In this document: piece by piece, positions 620-22,736 of the stretch
Position numbering within the stretch: position 1 is the first letter of the stretch
Layout of the letters: every line of letters starts with the position of its first letter
NCBI GenBank assembly: GCA_963281155.1
Contig: CAUJLY010000003.1
Span: 2,294,001-2,358,000 of the forward strand
Length of the DNA stretch: 64,000 nt
Direction: 5' to 3'
Origin: Rhabditophanes sp. KR3021
Lineage: Eukaryota; Nematoda; Chromadorea; Rhabditida; Alloionematidae
The notes under the pieces: generated by a model
Database searches by the model: none
What the model was told of the DNA's origin: nothing
What the model saw: only the letters and a program-made list of their open reading frames with translations
Translations under genes and position numbers: made by a program

Positions 620-12840
<12,221 letters not shown>

Positions 12841-14830: not shown

Positions 14831-15420
14831 ATGTCATTCTTGGCTCGTGCTATTCGTCAAGCTCCACGTCTTGCATCATTCACCCAAAGATATGCCTCTG
14901 CTGCTGCCGCTGAACACAGTGTCAATGAATTGAAATTTACTTTGGCATCTCCAGATACTGTACGTTTATTAGTTGCTTATTTTTTAATTTATTGTACCCA
15001 GGCTTTCTTTGATAATGCCTTGGTTAGACAAGTTGATGTACCAACAATCGCAGGAATGGTCGGTGTACTTGCCTCCCACGTACCCACTCTCGGAGTCTTG
15101 AAGCCAGGAGTTTTGAAAGTCACTGATACTGAAGGACAAATTACCGAACTATTCGTTTCATCCGGAACTCTTTCAATGAACATTGATGGAACTTGCCAAG
15201 TATTGGGCGAAGCTATCATTAAAGTTGCAGATATTGATGAATCCGTAAGTGTCAGATAAATGACACATCATTTAATTATCTCACTTTTTAGGCTGCTCGT
15301 AAAGTTCTTGAATCTGCCCAAAAAAGATCCCTCGAAGGAAGTGATAAGGATCGCGCCGAAGCTCACATTGAAATCGAAGTAGCTGAAGCTCTTATCAAAG
15401 CCGTCACTGGAGCACACTAA
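14831..15420 (+). CDS. ATP5F1D: Mitochondrial ATP synthase delta subunit (F1 central stalk)
   Basis: There are three exons, 14831-14959, 15002-15244 and 15292-15420, all in phase 0 with introns of 42 and 47 nt; the product has 166 residues. The N-terminus MSFLARAIRQAPRLAS is Arg/Ser/Ala-rich without acidic residues, a good mitochondrial presequence. The body begins with LKFTLASPD and has VRQVDVPTIAGMVGVLASHV, the beta-sandwich signature of the delta subunit (bacterial epsilon). It ends with a two-helix region (AARKVLESAQKR and IEVAEALIKAV). In the enzyme this subunit clamps gamma and epsilon to the c-ring. Length and order match animal ATP5F1D (168 residues in human). It sits 327 nt after HIBADH on the same strand. 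Both are mitochondrial, but nothing suggests co-transcription. Confidence 0.95.
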
Positions 15421-15771: not shown

Positions 15772-17165
15772 ATGTCTAATCCAGCACTAGTGAGTTTAAA
15801 ACATATTGTGTTTGTTTATTTACTCATGTTTAGAATGAAATCATTTCGATACACGTTGGTCAGGCAGGGACTAAAATTGGCGAATCTTGCTGTAAGTTAT
15901 TTTGTGTCGAACATGGAATTGATAAAAGTGGTTTTATTTTAAATAATCATTGCACTGATCGAACTGGAAACATTGATACTTTTTTTAATGTAAACTCAGA
16001 CAGCAAGTATATTCCGAGATCTTTATTTGTTGATCTGGATGATGGCTCGATTAATGAAATAATGAATGGATCACTTCGAAGGCTTTTTGACCCACGATAT
16101 TTAATTTCAAACAAAGAAGATGCTAGCAATAACTTTGCAAGAGGATATTATACCGTTGGAAGGAAGATTATTTCGAATGTTATGGATTCTGTTCAATCTT
16201 TAGCAGAGAACTGTGAAAATTTATCAGGTTTCCTAATATATAACTCAATTTGCGGTGGTACCGGTTCTGGGTTTGGATCTCTATTGATGCAAAAATTAAG
16301 TAAACAATACCGGAAAAAAACAAAAATGTGTTTTTGTGTTTTCCCTTCTAATAAACTAGCCAGTGCCGTTGTTGAACCTTATAATTCAATTTTATCCACA
16401 CACGCCACTCTTCCCCATTCAGACTGTAATTTTCTAGTAGACAACGAAGCTATTTACGGAATTTGTAGAAACAAACTTGACCTTGAAAAACCAAGTTTTT
16501 TTGAACTGAATATGGTTATTGCTCATGCCGTTTCCTTTATAACAACATCGTTTCGATTCGATGGTTCTCTTAATGTTAATTTAAATGAATTTCAAACGAA
16601 TTTGGTCCCATTTCCAACTGTTCACTTTATTGCTACCGCCATTTCGCCTCTCCGCTCGTCATCTAAGTCGACCTACTCAAACGTTGGTGGGCAACAAATA
16701 TTCCAAGAATGCTTTGACAAAGGTAACCAATTATTGAGTTGTGATATCGAGAAGGGAAAATTGATGACGGCGTGCATCCTGTTTAAAGGAGTTGTTCCGA
16801 TGAGAGATGTCAATGTAGGTATTGAAAGTATTAGACACAGTAAGATTGAGTATGTGGATTGGGCCCCGATAACGTTTAAGGTGGGAATTAATCATCGCAC
16901 GATGGACTGTCTTCCTAACGATATCGTTGGGAGAAGTTTGCTATCAGCTGGAATGGTTATAAATTCTACTGCTATGGGCAAATGTTGGAACAAGCTGAAT
17001 CAAAAGTTCGATAAACTGTATTCAAAGAAAGCGTTTGTACATTGGTATGTTGGGGAAGGAATGGAAGAAGGCGAATTTACAGAATCTAGGGAAAATTTGG
17101 CGAATCTCGAGAGAGATTATCTTGAAATGTCAATTGATTGCAATTCAGAAGAAGATGAGTATTAA
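15772..17165 (+). CDS. Highly divergent alpha-tubulin
   Basis: Exon 1, 15772-15789 (MSNPAL), and exon 2, 15834-17165, with a 44-nt intron, give 449 residues, a normal tubulin length. Alpha-class features are NEIISIHVGQAG at the start, the catalytic Glu in LNEFQTNLVPFP that drives GTP hydrolysis on the beta subunit, FVHWYVGEGMEEGEF, and the C-terminal EEDEY with terminal Tyr. Divergence is unusual for tubulin. The nucleotide-binding signature reads CGGTGSG with Cys in the first position. The loop that normally carries the acetylated Lys40 is shortened and has no Lys (DRTGNIDTFF). Many core positions are changed. The acidic tail is short. It may be a tissue-specific isotype, for example in sperm or cilia, or a fast-evolving paralogue. 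The frame is intact, so it is not a pseudogene. Confidence 0.92.
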
Positions 17166-17939
17166 TGCAATTCTTTTACTAATAAATTGTATGCATTTTT
17201 ATATAAAGACAAGTTAAAATATCTTATGATCCCAATTGAGACTTTGAAAAAATTGTCCTGCTTCAATCTTTTTCCATTAAACAGGGTTGCTACATCATAC
17301 TTGTTACCCACCGTCTTCAATATACAAGTGTTTATTAAATGTACGTCAATCGCACATATTAATGCAGACGAAGTACCGCGGTAGTAAATGGCATAGTAGA
17401 TCTTATGCGTCACAGACTGTAACATGAGAGTGTACAGACTAATTTGACAGGAGGAATTGAATTCATGCTAAAAAGTTATAAACGAATGACCGTATGATCG
17501 TCTACCACATACACGTGGATACACCAAACAGATGTGCATTTGCGCATATCAACAGTCTGCAATTTATACACTGGTAGGGTTGACTACTATTTGTAACCAA
17601 AGTCGAGAATAAGGCCTCCCGATAACAGCTTATTTATGAATTAGTGGTAGTGGACGTGTCATAAAACGTCCAGCCTCCATTCTCGAAAGTTTAGCTATAT
17701 AAAGTGCAATGTTACTCTTTTGTAGTTACTTTTGCTTTTATTTTGGTTTAAGTCAACTATCAAGATATAAAGATGGTCTTATTATACAGAGATGCAAAGT
17801 TATATGGTTTGTTTGAAATTGCTGATCTACTTTGCCACGGAGACAATGGTGGAAGACAGGCAGTTTTTGTCAATACAAATGATTTATTTTTGCAATTTGA
17901 TGTTATTTTAACTTCTCAGTATATCACGCAAATATCGAA
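17166..17939. other. Region upstream of the repeat array
   Basis: Tubulin 3' UTR followed by DNA without a recognisable gene. A small frame at 17773-18120 begins just before the array and runs through three of its boxes. It has no motif and I do not treat it as a gene. Confidence 0.35.
17696..17704 (+). promoter_or_regulatory. Possible TATA box (TATATAAAG) upstream of the array
   Basis: A good TATA-box match in a locally GC-richer context, about 245 nt before the first GTCGCAAA box and 70 nt before ATG 17773. It could drive transcription across the array. AT-rich DNA yields chance matches, so this is weak evidence. Confidence 0.25.
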
Positions 17940-18810
17940 GTCGCAAATGGTTTATGCCTTACTTTTTTGTAGGCTAACCACCTCTTCTTTTGGTGTCGCA
18001 AAGGTTCGGGCAAAGAATGATTTTTCAGAATTACCGCTTTCAATAGTTATGATTCGAATGATTTTCAAGCCCGGACTGTTTATAATTCATGTATGGAGTA
18101 ATTGTAATGTCGCAAATTGATTTCTATAAAATTACTTCCCCATGAATTTATTTTGTTATCCTTGTTTTCTAGTTAATCACCTTTTATATGTCGCAAAAGA
18201 TACTTGCTATACGCTTGAATCATCCTTATTATTTATCTATTCTTAAATATTACGTCGCAAATGGTTTAAGCAGATTGCTTGAATCTTACTTAGTCTTTAA
18301 TTACTTGCTTTTTGTACTATTATGGTACTTATTCATCGATAACTTCTTTGAATCCTCCCATTTCCTTATTTTTACTGTCGCAAAGATTCTTATTTGAAAT
18401 ATCCAAAGAGAATCATTTTCCATTTCTTTTCTTATTGTCGCAAATGATTCATGCTATTGAAAAGGCAGTTTGAATCTTCATACACCTAAATTAATTGTAG
18501 CGATTTCCCCCATCCTTTTCAAAGTCGCAAATGGTTCATCCTAGAATATCTAGTTTGAATCACATTTTCTCTAGTAAATGCTCAATATTTACACTGTCGC
18601 AAAGGATTTATTCAATTTTGTGTGAATCCCTTCTTTTTCTATACCATAGCAAATCCTCCTTTATTTTCTTATAAATCCTCCTTTATTTCCTTATAAATCC
18701 TTCTTTATTTTCTTATAAATCCTTCTTTATTATCCTCTAGATACTTCTTTGTTATGTTGTAAATACTTTTCATTATCATTTATATACTTTACATTATTAA
18801 ATGTCGCAAA
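17940..18810 (+). repeat. Array of ten GTCGCAAA boxes followed by hairpin arms
   Basis: The exact octamer GTCGCAAA starts at 17940, 17995, 18109, 18190, 18254, 18377, 18437, 18524, 18596 and 18803, always on this strand, at spacings of 55 to 207 nt. The sequence just after each box pairs with a downstream arm: TGGTT with AACCA (17940 copy), GGTTCGGGC with GCCCGGACT (17995), TGATT with AATCA (18109), GGTTTAAGCA with TGCTTGAATC around a 3-nt loop (18254), GATTCTT with GAGAATC (18377), GATTCA with TGAATC (18437), GGTTCA with TGAATC (18524), GGATTTA with TGAATCC (18596) and TGTTT with AAACA (18803). Arms differ among copies while pairing is kept, including G-U pairs. The 18190 copy pairs poorly. 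Two further octamers lie at 19258 and 20716. Function is unknown. Confidence 0.7.
18651..18782 (+). repeat. Six degenerate 22-bp tandem units within the array
   Basis: Units of the form AAATCCTYCTTTATTTYCTTAT begin at 18651, 18673, 18695, 18717, 18739 and 18761. The first four are nearly identical and the last two are decayed. The tract occupies the widest gap between GTCGCAAA boxes (18596 to 18803) and is preceded by TAGCAAA, a decayed version of the box. Confidence 0.8.
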
Positions 18811-21768
18811 TGTTTTATTCTTCGGTTTAAACAACTTCTGTTTAATAATAACACCTCTGTAAATTCAACAAGAAATATTTATCAAAAAAACCACCTTGGG
18901 CCCGGAATGACAATTAGGTAACATTAATCTGTTCTTGAAGACAATTGACAATCACCCCATCCAATTAATTAAAATTGCTGTTTTTCGAATGATACCTGAT
19001 AGTGTTGGTCTTGTATTTGATAAGTAGGAATAAAATGTGGTAGAACACAGGAAAAGACGCCTTCAGCTATCAATTAATAAAGTTAAAGAGTGGCTTTTTT
19101 TAATTTTCCAAGGCGTCTTTATGTAGGGTGTGGTGAATCAATAACGCAAATGTACGAAAACCGCCGCTGTTGACGCTATCCCTAACCGTATTTATTTTGA
19201 CCTCCCATTTGTCAAAGAACGGAGGGGATGGCTGGGTAATTTTGTATTTCTCATTCAGTCGCAAAATTTTCAATGTGTGGGGTGGCGCTTTGTTTATAAA
19301 ATTTGATGAATTCATTTATTTTCTGATACATTTTTAAATATTGCCTATTGTATTGACAACTACCAGACCAATGGGTTATACATTGTACCCGAATTCAAGG
19401 AAATGCCATGCAGACATTTTTCTTAGCAAGTTACAAAATGGAACTATTAATAGAATTTTAAAATAATGAGGATAGTTATTTCAACCTAAGGTACCTGCTG
19501 TGTTTTCAAGAAATTAGGAAAATTGGTTTTGTTAAATATTGTCTACCCACCCTGACTCAATCGCAAAATGAGCCCGCAAACTCTTAGTTTATTTGCCGCA
19601 GAACTTTTACAACAAACACCGACATACCGAATACTCTGAAAAGTGTAATACGTCCTAGATTATAGAAATGACACCTCCTAACACGGAATTGTGACGTACG
19701 TATGTGGCTTGTCTGTAATCTAAATTTGTGAAATAAACTAATGAGCAATACTGTATCACAGCAAAAATGCATCGCAAAGCAGTTTGATAATCCATCCATC
19801 TCTCCCTCCTTATCATTTTACTAAAACGCATAAAATCACCGAAAAATTCAAAAGCCCTACAAAAGTCGAAAAAAGTATTTAAACATGGATTATTAACAGT
19901 ATCATTAAAAAACAAAAAACCCGCTTAATGTCAATTTGTTTACAGTCAACGAAATTCTTTATCTGTTTACATTTTTTGCAGGTGGCACCAAAAACAATTT
20001 GTATCACCTTTTATGTTTAAAACTAAGAATCGCGAATGTTCTTTAAAGCCATATTCAACAATATATGCCGTTTATGCCTTGACAAGTCAATTTATACCTA
20101 AATTAACGCAATATAAGCATTTAATCCTCGAAATTTGACGCAATACATACTTCAATCGGAAAATTGTGCTTTGTCTGTAGACGGTAACATTTTTGTCTGT
20201 CTATACAACAACTTTGCATTCCTCCTTTACAAACAACTATTAAAATGAATTGGCTCCCAGAATTTAATATTCTACACTAATTACGTGAGTTTAAGATCAA
20301 CCACAATTCAAAGAAATGCATTCTAAGAATTGAGATTCCGTTTTTGAGATGACTTAGTTAATTACTTTATCTGAGCTAATTTTAATTAGTTCGCAAAAAC
20401 TTTTCATATGTACTCATAGCCCCAATATAATTAAGACAATTAGAAAACTATTTAATGCAAGAATGTTATAATCTTTAGATTGACAATATTTTTGCTGCCC
20501 CCTTTGTCTGTAACAAATTGATAAGTAGGAGGGACTAAACATCTGTCCGACCTTAACTTTTTAACACATGCAAACTAACTTGAATTAATTTACCTTCCTT
20601 CTTTATACAACAACAATGATTAAATGGAAACTACTGAATCGCAATGATGTAAATAAAATTATGTAAACCGTATTTGTAGAAAAAAATTGACTAAAAATAG
20701 AAAGCTAGGACTACAGTCGCAAAGAATTCTCGAGCCGTTGTTGGGATATTTTATTTCAAGGTTGGTCTTGAAGTAGGATCCTCATCAGCTTAATTGTCAA
20801 TGTTGCGGTCTGATGACAGCCCTTCAAACAATTTAGAAAGGCAATAAGGTTCATCAAATCCTGGAACAAGTTTTTTATTAAGAAAAATACAATATTTATC
20901 TATTCAAAAAGCAGATTTGCCGCATAATATTCATTACCAAATAGTATTATCGTTTGTAATCATCTGCACCAAAAAAATGATTTCACTGCTTATTCATAAA
21001 ATACCAAAAAAAAATAAAATTCAAAAGACCCAAAAACAAGATTTTAACGTCAAATTGACAATCAACATTATGACAGACGTGCAAACCCTCGAATTAAAAT
21101 GTCATACTAGCTCTGCCGGAAAACAGAGCTCCTAGCATTTGGATAACCCGTTAGATTTAATGCACTTTTTATTAACACTGCATTCAAAGCTTATTTGCTG
21201 ACAGAAAGGCGTCGAACTTTAACGGAAAAGAAAATGAATTGAAATGGCACGGCCTTACCCAAGAACTTCAATTAAATTTTGAGCAGTTATTCGGACAGCT
21301 TGTTTATATGTATTAGTAAAATTATTAAATAGCTTTTATGTAAGTTCCACCCTTCATTTAATTAATTATAATATGTGAATTTTCAGATTTAACGTTACTT
21401 TAATAGAAACGCCCCTTTAAATCGTTTTTAAATACATAGCCAATTTTGGAGAGTCTTAATTTCCAATTATTATGTAAACAATCCGAATTATTATATAATC
21501 AACTCCAATTATTGAGCGAAAACACAAATAACAAATAAACTGCAAGATACGAAGGCAACTTAATCATTAATTATACAACTTTGCCTTGCAAATTTTCTAT
21601 TTGATATAAATTGATTAAATAACCTCGTTTGACTTACATTGATAATTTAATATTTGAATTTAACATTTACAACAACTATATATTTTACTCAAAGTAATAA
21701 CCAAATTATGATCATACAATATAGTATGAAATAAGTACATAACGAATTATTCTTTTTTAATTGATCAC
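18811..21768. other. Gene-poor region with scattered box copies and small relic frames
   Basis: About 3 kb lies between the array and the next gene. It holds two more GTCGCAAA octamers (19258, 20716) and near-matches at about 19560, 19771 and 20391. The minus strand has a small coding-like frame at 19100-19315 (Pro/Trp-containing and balanced composition, 71 codons) and two overlapping frames between 19584 and 19915. None has a recognisable motif or splice context. These may be relics of an inserted sequence. Confidence 0.35.
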
Positions 21769-22736
21769 ATGTCCGATACAACCTTAACCAGTTTTGTAGA
21801 TAATGAGTTCAGAAATACGTTTAGGCGGATGTATGACGAAAAGAAGCAACTCGAATATGTAAATTTAACCATTGTGGTCCCAAATAATCATTCTATTTTT
21901 AGCGACTTGAACAGGTGAGAAATGTAGCTCACAATCAGCAACTTGAGCTCCAAGAAATGGAACAAACAATAATTGAACTGCTCAATAAAGACAAAGATAA
22001 TCAAATGATTTTGAAGTGTCTGGGAAAGACAGCTAAGGACAACGCTAGTCTAAAGTCCGAACTTAAAAATACGGATGAGATGTTAGTCAGAGTTAGTACG
22101 GAGAACCAAAAGATGAAACAAGAACGCGATACTTTAATGAGATTGAATGATAATCTCAAGTTAGAAATAAAGCTGCAGCCCTTTTTTATTGCGAGATCAC
22201 AGCCATCTACTCCAGTTATCAATTCACAGGCTCTTAATAATCAGATCAATTTGGAACAAGAATGCCAAGGGACATACAACTTGGTATTATCATTGCAATC
22301 CGTAATCGCTGAAAAAAATGAAGAAATATCAAAATTGACTGAATGTATTAATGGATACAAAAATATCAACCATGAACAAAAAAAGGAAAAAATTAAGCTA
22401 AAGCTACACGTATTGCGTTTGGAAAAGAACAAAAACTTCATGATGGTTAAGATGAATGGGATGATTGATAATAGTGGCGGATGTATACAAAACTATCTAA
22501 CTGCTTTTCCGTTCTCCAATACATTAGCCCATGAATTATTGGAGCTTTCTCTGAAGCAAAAATTGAGGTGTGAGGGCAATGACTGTCACATGAACACTGC
22601 TATCAGTTTCAAATCAACAATTGAAGGGGGTGAGGTTATTATTCCAGAACCAAAGATAAGTGATCTAAAAAGAAAACTCGACATATTTGACAATGTCACA
22701 AAGAAAAGCCGGCAACATTATTTCGCTTTTAACTAA
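21769..22736 (+). CDS. Coiled-coil protein of unknown function
   Basis: Exons 21769-21858 and 21903-22736, with a 44-nt intron in phase 0, give 307 residues. The first exon encodes MSDTTLTSFVDNEFRNTF and leads into a long helical region rich in Glu, Lys, Gln and Leu (about residues 20-115). A Pro/Ser-containing break (ARSQPSTPVIN) follows, then a second coiled coil (about 145-200, with runs such as EQKKEKIKLKLHVLRLEKNK). The C-terminal third is less helical and contains CEGND and KRKLDIF. This layout suggests a structural or scaffold protein, perhaps centrosomal or cytoskeletal, but no family is recognised. The splice sites are canonical and the frame is clean, so the gene model is firmer than the function. 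Confidence 0.75.

What the first reader, a model, noticed from the sequence alone, without database searches (positions are those of the whole stretch)
17940..18810. Array of GTCGCAAA boxes, each followed by a hairpin whose arms co-vary
Ten exact octamers, all on one strand, occur in 0.87 kb; an octamer is expected about once in a 64 kb window. Right after the box, at least nine of ten copies have an arm that pairs with a downstream arm. The arms differ between copies but remain complementary: TGGTT/AACCA, GGTTCGGGC/GCCCGGACT, GATTCTT/GAGAATC, GGTTCA/TGAATC, GGATTTA/TGAATCC and TGTTT/AAACA. The 18254 copy has a 10-bp stem with a 3-nt loop and two G-T pairs. A constant single-stranded box plus a variable but paired stem is the signature of a structured RNA family, not of simple tandem decay. 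No known ribozyme, snoRNA, tRNA or CRISPR layout fits.
Basis: seen in the sequence. Interest (0 to 1): 0.82.

Follow-up and report, generated by a model that had tools for sequence, protein, structure and literature searches.

The report
MicroRNA seed-site array with paired hairpins
In a small roundworm genome, one short stretch carries ten or more docking sites for what looks like a whole family of tiny regulatory RNAs, most of the ten main sites followed by a small hairpin, which suggests an RNA built to soak up or clear that family and gives a testable clue to a current puzzle about how worms destroy microRNAs.

Summary
In detail: ten exact GTCGCAAA boxes on one strand of 0.87 kb (12 in 2.8 kb). 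Box-adjacent stems beat swapped arms, random starts and genome controls as a group; seven of ten form in hand-cut folds.

The window is from the nematode Rhabditophanes diutinus. Elsewhere in that genome (scaffold C4) the complement of the box, TTTGCGAC (TTTGCGAT in one), sits at the predicted 5' end of the 3p arm in nine pri-miRNA-like hairpins (8 of 9 with z -2.5 to -9.0). GTCGCAAA is thus the canonical 8mer site (m2-m8 plus t1A) of a clustered miRNA family. A sequenced Bursaphelenchus miRNA (PMC2953492) begins with the same eight bases.

I read the array as a seed-only target array for the whole family: 12 8mers and three 7mer-A1 sites, no 3' supplementary pairing. The likeliest carrier is a decoy or clearance lncRNA like C. 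elegans tts-2, which degrades all of mir-35-42 through the seed plus an unknown cue. The hairpin 3' of the core sites is a candidate cue. Transcription, the miRNAs and the mechanism are unshown; three Pfam models for ZSWIM8/EBAX-1 parts found nothing here.

The parts
17940..17947 (+). Site 1, 8mer GTCGCAAA; hairpin arms 17948-17952 / 17976-17980 (TGGTT/AACCA)
   Evidence: fold z -2.57
17995..18002 (+). Site 2, 8mer; arms 18003-18011 / 18069-18077 (GGTTCGGGC/GCCCGGACT)
   Evidence: fold -25.3 kcal/mol, z -3.63
18109..18116 (+). Site 3, 8mer; weak arms 18118-18122 / 18175-18179 (TGATT/AATCA)
   Evidence: stem not in the minimum-energy fold, z -0.82
18190..18197 (+). Site 4, 8mer; broken stem with GAT 18199-18201 / ATC 18219-18221
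   Evidence: z -0.11
18254..18261 (+). Site 5, 8mer; arms 18263-18272 / 18276-18285 (GGTTTAAGCA/TGCTTGAATC, 3-nt loop)
   Evidence: z -2.68
18377..18384 (+). Site 6, 8mer; arms 18385-18391 / 18408-18414 (GATTCTT/GAGAATC)
   Evidence: z -2.97
18437..18444 (+). Site 7, 8mer; arms 18446-18451 / 18471-18476 (GATTCA/TGAATC)
   Evidence: stem formed, z only -0.73
18524..18531 (+). Site 8, 8mer; arms 18532-18538 / 18556-18562 (TGGTTCA/TGAATCA)
   Evidence: z -3.92
18596..18603 (+). Site 9, 8mer; arms 18604-18610 / 18623-18629 (GGATTTA/TGAATCC)
   Evidence: z -2.95
18803..18810 (+). Site 10, 8mer; weak arms 18811-18815 / 18829-18833 (TGTTT/AAACA)
   Evidence: stem not in the minimum-energy fold, z -0.51
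19258..19265 (+). Outlying 8mer site without a notable box-adjacent stem
   Evidence: score 10; genome mean 8.35
20716..20723 (+). Outlying 8mer site without a notable box-adjacent stem
   Evidence: score 7
19561..19567 (+). 7mer-A1 site TCGCAAA
19772..19778 (+). 7mer-A1 site TCGCAAA
20391..20397 (+). 7mer-A1 site TCGCAAA
17696..17704 (+). TATATAAAG, TATA-box-like, a possible promoter of the array transcript (inferred)
   Evidence: sequence, pattern position (ten such patterns in 17.0-21.9 kb); no transcript data
19029..19081 (+). Two AATAAA poly(A)-type signals (19029, 19076), a possible 3' end of a transcript with the ten core sites (inferred)
   Evidence: seven AATAAA in 17.0-21.9 kb

Best explanation
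The array is a multi-site target RNA for a microRNA family whose members share the 5' end UUUGCGAC. Shown by computation: the boxes are 8mer target sites (complement of miRNA nt 2-8 plus A opposite nt 1), and the matching seed sits at the start of the 3p arm in a cluster of nine pri-miRNA-like hairpins on another scaffold of the same genome. There is no supplementary pairing to the predicted miRNA 3' ends, so the members would be bound alike. Inferred: the + strand of about 17.7-19.1 kb (or to 20.9 kb) is transcribed as a mostly noncoding RNA, and Argonautes loaded with any member bind it through the seed alone. Binding titrates the family or, as with C. elegans tts-2, triggers its decay. The hairpin on the 3' side of the core sites would present the site or serve as a cis signal read together with bound Argonaute.
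For: Both arrays are exceptional: 10 boxes in 0.9 kb here and 7 in 1 kb on C4, against at most 4 of any filtered octamer per 900 nt in 200 kb of control sequence. Pairs of boxes with gaps 9-39, 40-70, 75-105 and 106-136 in 44.8 Mb lie in these two arrays in 10 of 12 matches. C4 was found by its boxes, so its clustering is not independent; its hairpin geometry is. C4 hairpins: 8 of 9 with z -2.55 to -9.00; the stem runs 7-14 nt past nt 22 in 9 of 9; the seed strand folds better in 6 of 9 and in sum, -273 against -240 kcal/mol. Conservation stops at the 8mer on both sides: 2.0 bits over exactly 8 positions here (by selection of exact boxes), and nt 1-8 on C4 with 1.5 bits at nt 8. A sequenced B. 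xylophilus miRNA, bxy-novel-09, starts UUUGCGAC. All 15 TCGCAAA of 17.9-20.8 kb are on +, with one elsewhere in the window and none on -. No 3' pairing beyond chance: 8.43 against control 9.14 +- 0.31. A seed-only trigger for a whole family is reported for tts-2/mir-35-42 (PMC12324485). AATAAA follows the upstream tubulin stop by 16 nt, and the 115-aa ORF at 17773 has no protein relative at E 1.
Against: No RNA data: neither the transcript nor the miRNAs are shown to exist. Two C4 hairpins (4625, 5786) fold clearly better on the other strand and 4274 slightly so; 4625 has z -0.54 on the seed strand. The windows were chosen for the best seed-strand fold, which favours that strand. Boxes are not predicted to be more open than average: 0.11 against 0.14. 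The codon score of 17773-17940 resembles that of exons (0.109), so a short coding part is possible; the test is coarse. Three Pfam models for ZSWIM8/EBAX-1 parts found nothing in this genome, which speaks weakly against the decay version. For two of them the controls were silent, while the Piwi model found 19 stretches here.
Confidence: 0.6

Rival explanations
1. The sites lie in the 3' UTR of a protein-coding gene that is strongly repressed by the family, as lin-14 is by lin-4 (recalled). The product would be a short protein starting at 17773, or the tubulin-like gene with an extended 3' UTR.
For: ATG ORF 17773-18120; codon score of its first 56 codons is exon-like, 0.109; TATA-like box at 17696.
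Against: No homolog of the ORF at E 1 and no Pfam domain at E 0.1. The ORF runs into boxes 1-3, where the codon score falls to -0.046. The tubulin stop at 17165 is followed at once by AATAAA (17181).
Confidence: 0.22
2. Both arrays are noncoding RNAs with the box as binding motif of an RNA-binding protein. The C4 hairpins are transcribed from the box strand and are not microRNAs.
For: Same box in two arrays; three of nine C4 hairpins fold better on the box strand; box-hairpin layout recalls roX or Xist repeats (recalled).
Against: On C4 the complement sits exactly where a 3p miRNA would start, with pri-miRNA stem length. The eight bases are those of a sequenced miRNA's 5' end. The box has different structural places in the two arrays, which a protein motif would not predict.
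Confidence: 0.1
3. DNA element: a cluster of transcription-factor sites or an enhancer.
For: Between genes, many exact sites.
Against: All 12 in one orientation. The arms co-vary, and a scan that allowed both wobbles gave 15 G-T against 3 A-C in the best stems, as for + strand RNA (small sample, and 5 of the 15 come from one copy).
Confidence: 0.04
4. Decayed tandem repeats or a decayed antisense copy of the miRNA cluster, without function.
For: A 22-nt minisatellite lies inside the array.
Against: No one-mismatch box in the array although spacers are unrelated; no pairing across the boxes as on C4.
Confidence: 0.04

Closest known systems
tts-2 lncRNA of C. elegans, TDMD trigger of mir-35-42 (PMC12324485, a preprint; abstract, introduction, first Results section, sections 11, 13, 14 and passages read)
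   Same: One RNA matched to the shared seed of a clustered miRNA family; no need for pairing to the miRNA 3' ends; nematode.
   Different: tts-2 has one full and one partial seed site; here 12 8mers. tts-2's extra cue is unknown and its point mutants spanned t8-t35 (5' of the seed match). Here core sites have a hairpin on the 3' side. Different seed; no sequence relation tested.
[quoted passage not shown]
   Same: Many seed sites for one miRNA on one noncoding RNA.
   Different: Far fewer sites here; circularity unknown; adjacent hairpins not mentioned in the passages that I saw.
bxy-novel-09 miRNA of Bursaphelenchus xylophilus (PMC2953492, section 7 and passages read)
   Same: Starts UUUGCGAC, as do eight of the nine predicted 3p miRNAs (the ninth UUUGCGAU).
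   Different: Single miRNA there, listed without homologues. Beyond the seed the best R. diutinus members match 8 of 15, not significant by total identity (3146 of 20000 shuffles) and borderline by runs (2133 of 50000).
lin-14 3' UTR with multiple lin-4 sites (recalled)
   Same: Several sites for one miRNA in one transcript.
   Different: Coding mRNA and a target to be repressed (recalled).
roX RNA / Xist A-repeat (recalled; one roX paper seen in a search listing)
   Same: Short constant box with hairpins in tandem.
   Different: There the repeats bind protein complexes (recalled); here the box is explained by a miRNA seed.

Membership tests
microRNA target site array | Exact complement of miRNA nt 2-8 plus A opposite nt 1 | tested here: met
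   12 GTCGCAAA on one strand; seed TTTGCGAC on C4
microRNA target site array | Bound by Argonaute in vivo | not testable with these tools
   no CLIP or RNA data
clustered microRNA family (C4 partner locus) | Hairpin with about 22-nt mature arm, paired, with about 11 bp of basal stem (geometry recalled) | tested here: met
   14-20 of 22 nt paired, stem 7-14 nt past nt 22 in 9 of 9; z -2.5 or lower in 8 of 9. Two further TTTGCGA of the 11 in the locus are not such hairpins and were dropped
clustered microRNA family (C4 partner locus) | Sequenced mature product with fixed 5' end | not testable with these tools
   only a Bursaphelenchus miRNA with the same 8-nt start was found
clustered microRNA family (C4 partner locus) | Rfam miRNA family | tested here: not met
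   best mir-2566, 26.5 bits against a gathering score of 86
TDMD trigger | Seed pairing | tested here: met

TDMD trigger | Extended 3' pairing (classical triggers; not needed for tts-2) | tested here: not met
   8.43 against control 9.14 +- 0.31
TDMD trigger | ZSWIM8/EBAX-1 ligase in the organism | tested here: inconclusive
   PF04434 (E 0.001), PF25572 and PF21055 (E 1): no match; the controls of the last two were silent
TDMD trigger | Loss of the RNA stabilises the miRNA | not testable with these tools
   experiment
miRNA sponge | Many sites on an abundant RNA that is not coding | tested here: inconclusive
   sites met; abundance and noncoding nature not shown; codon score ambiguous
Known structured RNA (Rfam: ribozyme, snoRNA, tRNA, riboswitch) | Score above a family's gathering threshold | tested here: not met
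   0 matches in 64 kb; best E 0.26 in 17000-21900; no tRNA

The most novel reading that the evidence does not exclude
The ten site-plus-hairpin units are repeated copies of a composite degradation signal: the seed site docks Argonaute with any family member, and the hairpin immediately 3' of it is the cis element that marks the complex for destruction. This would be the missing cue of seed-only target-directed miRNA degradation, amplified tenfold in one RNA, in a lineage with a different miRNA family from C. elegans and perhaps with a ligase other than EBAX-1.
Probability: 0.17. Interest if true: 0.92.

Novelty: new variant of a known kind. Interest (0 to 1): 0.74.

Why it matters
How an RNA that pairs only with the seed sends a whole miRNA family to destruction, while ordinary targets do not, is an open question; [quoted passage not shown] Their point mutants covered the 5' side of the seed match (t8-t35). 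Here nature seems to repeat a seed site with a compensated hairpin on the 3' side ten times, not equally well in every copy. That gives a concrete element to transplant and mutate, and a clade IV miRNA family with a candidate regulator. If the decay version is wrong, it is still a natural multi-site miRNA decoy or a very strongly targeted mRNA.

Tried and rejected
Rfam on the window, on 17000-21900, on L017 with L018 and on part of L017: no family above its threshold, and only sub-threshold matches. Protein reading of the array: the ORF at 17773 has no homolog and no Pfam domain. Dispersed single copies of box plus hairpin: the pattern finds three places, all in the array; DNA search with 1 kb finds only itself. 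Other box clusters: C4 and two isolated pairs; gaps of 71-74 and above 136 were not searched with the octamer. The boxes at C6:9.05 Mb (three in L018) were folded and show no such hairpin; the pair at C1:61.8 kb was not examined. TCGCAAA pairs at C3:5.07 Mb, C6:0.21 Mb and C1:8.82 Mb were set aside on their sequence alone. Five single boxes elsewhere (L001-L005) were folded without a matching layout. Spliced-leader and hammerhead readings were weighed by eye only and dropped (recalled features). 3' supplementary pairing and better accessibility of the boxes: tested, not found. A first structure count named the wrong columns and was redone. Papers: GTCGCAAA as a whole word in none of the library; UUUGCGAC in 67 papers, ten listed, none of those nematode by title; UUUGCGA with nematode and miRNA in four papers, all listed, one relevant. 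No paper on R. diutinus miRNAs shows in the titles listed (30 of 58; 7 of 7); this does not show that none exists.

Full report
WHAT AND WHERE. The window is nematode DNA. The ATP synthase delta ORF at 14831 has its best match in Rhabditophanes sp. KR3021 (87% over the whole query), then Parastrongyloides and Strongyloides. The assembly holding it has 44.8 Mb in six contigs, five of which were seen to be 11.21, 9.31, 7.88, 7.52 and 6.57 Mb long. This fits the R. diutinus KR3021 v.2 assembly (44.8 Mb; 11.2, 9.3, 7.8, 7.5, 6.5 and 2.3 Mb; PMC10676810 Results, part 1 of 2). The array lies in the 7.5-Mb scaffold. It sits between an alpha-tubulin-like frame ending at 17165 (Pfam tubulin) and a coiled-coil gene that I read by eye as starting near 21772.

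OBSERVATION. Ten exact GTCGCAAA lie on + in 17940-18810 and two more at 19258 and 20716; shuffles give 1.45 in the window. Counting TCGCAAA, 15 of the window's 16 lie in 17941-20723, all on +. In 20 random 10-kb stretches no octamer passing the complexity filter exceeds 4 copies in 900 nt. The stem after the box is real as a group property. The mean score of the ten is 13.7, against 8.35 at 4000 random genome positions (0 of 20000 resamplings) and 7.7 on the upstream side of the same boxes, and 8.26 at random starts within the array. Own arms beat swapped arms (p 0.012 to 0.00025). It is not equally good in every copy. Hand-cut folds show it clearly in seven of ten, with z -2.5 or lower in six. 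Uniform 50-nt windows give z -2.4 or lower in four, with + folding better than - in six of ten. The alignment test is weak because few pairs vary and two or three copies had to be left out (57 of 500 and 29 of 500 shuffles as high). A covariance model of seven copies does not single out the other three. The five outlying sites have no such stem (scores 10, 7, 11, 3, 5).

THE PARTNER LOCUS. Searching the genome for pairs of boxes with gaps of 9-39, 40-70, 75-105 and 106-136 gave 12 matches: seven in the window array, three on scaffold C4 near 2.418 Mb and two isolated ones. In the fetched 10 kb of C4 the box occurs nine times exactly on one strand and never on the other. Read on the opposite strand, TTTGCGAC follows the loop of a hairpin in eight cases and TTTGCGAT in a ninth. 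Of 11 TTTGCGA on that strand, two (3140, which is one of the nine exact boxes, and 7510) have no such hairpin and were set aside. The nine hairpins have variable, complementary arms; z is -4.96, -6.01, -4.14, -6.61, -0.54, -6.88, -9.00, -5.89 and -2.55. The paired stem runs 7-14 nt beyond nt 22 of a 3p product starting at the seed, as expected for a pri-miRNA (geometry recalled). The seed strand folds better in six of nine and in sum, in windows that I chose for that strand. 4625 and 5786 clearly prefer the other strand and 4274 slightly. I take this as evidence against the reading, though not strong enough to overturn it. Conservation covers nt 1-8 and falls off after that, the pattern of a seed family.

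EXTERNAL SUPPORT. A miRNA with these first eight bases has been sequenced in another nematode: bxy-novel-09, 56.0-704.8 counts/Mb, in a set whose precursors were checked by PCR, listed as species-specific (PMC2953492 section 7). Beyond the seed the likeness to C4 members is not significant by total identity and borderline by runs, so orthology is open.

WHAT THE BOX IS. GTCGCAAA is exactly the 8mer site of such a family: complement of nt 2-8 plus A opposite nt 1. In the window the constant block is these eight bases and no more. TCGCAAA is the 7mer-A1 site. The array thus holds 12 8mers and three 7mer-A1 sites. Pairing to the predicted miRNA 3' parts is not above control, so all members would be bound alike.

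MECHANISM. Shown by computation: the site array, the hairpins on the 3' side of core sites, the complementary miRNA-like cluster, and Piwi domains in the genome (19 matched stretches, gene pieces counted apart). Inferred: one + strand transcript from the TATA-like box at 17696 to AATAAA at 19029 or 19076, or further. Inferred: binding of the whole family through the seed, with titration or decay of the miRNAs as result. The nearest precedent is tts-2 of C. elegans, a lncRNA that clears all mir-35-42 members by seed pairing and, its authors say, must use another cue such as a specialised RNA structure (PMC12324485). Its point mutants ran from t8 to t35 on the 5' side. The hairpins here lie on the other side, which section 13 does not report as tested. 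Against the decay version: SWIM, TPR_ZSWIM8 and ZSWIM4-8_C models found nothing here; since two of these controls were silent, this is inconclusive. Against a pure lncRNA: the first 56 codons of the ORF at 17773 score like exons, although some unassigned open frames score as high.

NOVELTY. miRNA sponges and seed-only triggers are known kinds. I saw no description of a nematode array of site-plus-hairpin units matched to a clustered family in the listings, which cover one library only and in part. I file it as a new variant of a known kind. The bolder reading, a repeated composite degradation signal, is not excluded and is directly testable.

Noticed in passing
17793-17894 (+): A 102-nt irregular hairpin upstream of the array folds at -29.4 kcal/mol in a 110-nt window, z -3.58; it lies inside the ORF at 17773 and may be part of the same transcript.
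   Followed up: partly
19053-19120 (+): Perfect 11-bp inverted repeat AAAGACGCCTT/AAGGCGTCTTT, 46 nt apart, with an AATAAA between its arms; z of the fold -2.10.
   Followed up: partly
19709-20511 (+): TTGTCTGT occurs four times on + in 0.8 kb; outside the tested region the window has none on + and two on -. A second possible box between the same two genes.
   Followed up: no
18651-18789: 22-nt minisatellite (consensus AAATACTTCTTTATTATCTTAT, 6.4 copies) between sites 9 and 10.
   Followed up: no
L019, L020, L021 (C3:5.07 Mb, C6:0.21 Mb, C1:8.82 Mb): A separate dispersed repeat in which TCGCAAA boxes 60-70 nt apart alternate with TTGCGAAG-type complements; different in layout.
   Followed up: partly
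G000:C2:2400561, 3074749, 3692802: Three Piwi-domain frames with the same score (186.3 bits, 836-aa frames), probably recent copies.
   Followed up: no
16062-17165 (+): Divergent alpha-tubulin-like frame; the Pfam match starts at profile position 63, so its N-terminus probably lies in an earlier exon.
   Followed up: no
G000 whole genome: No match to SWIM (E 0.001) or to two ZSWIM8-type models (E 1); possible loss or divergence of EBAX-1 in this lineage, not shown.
   Followed up: partly
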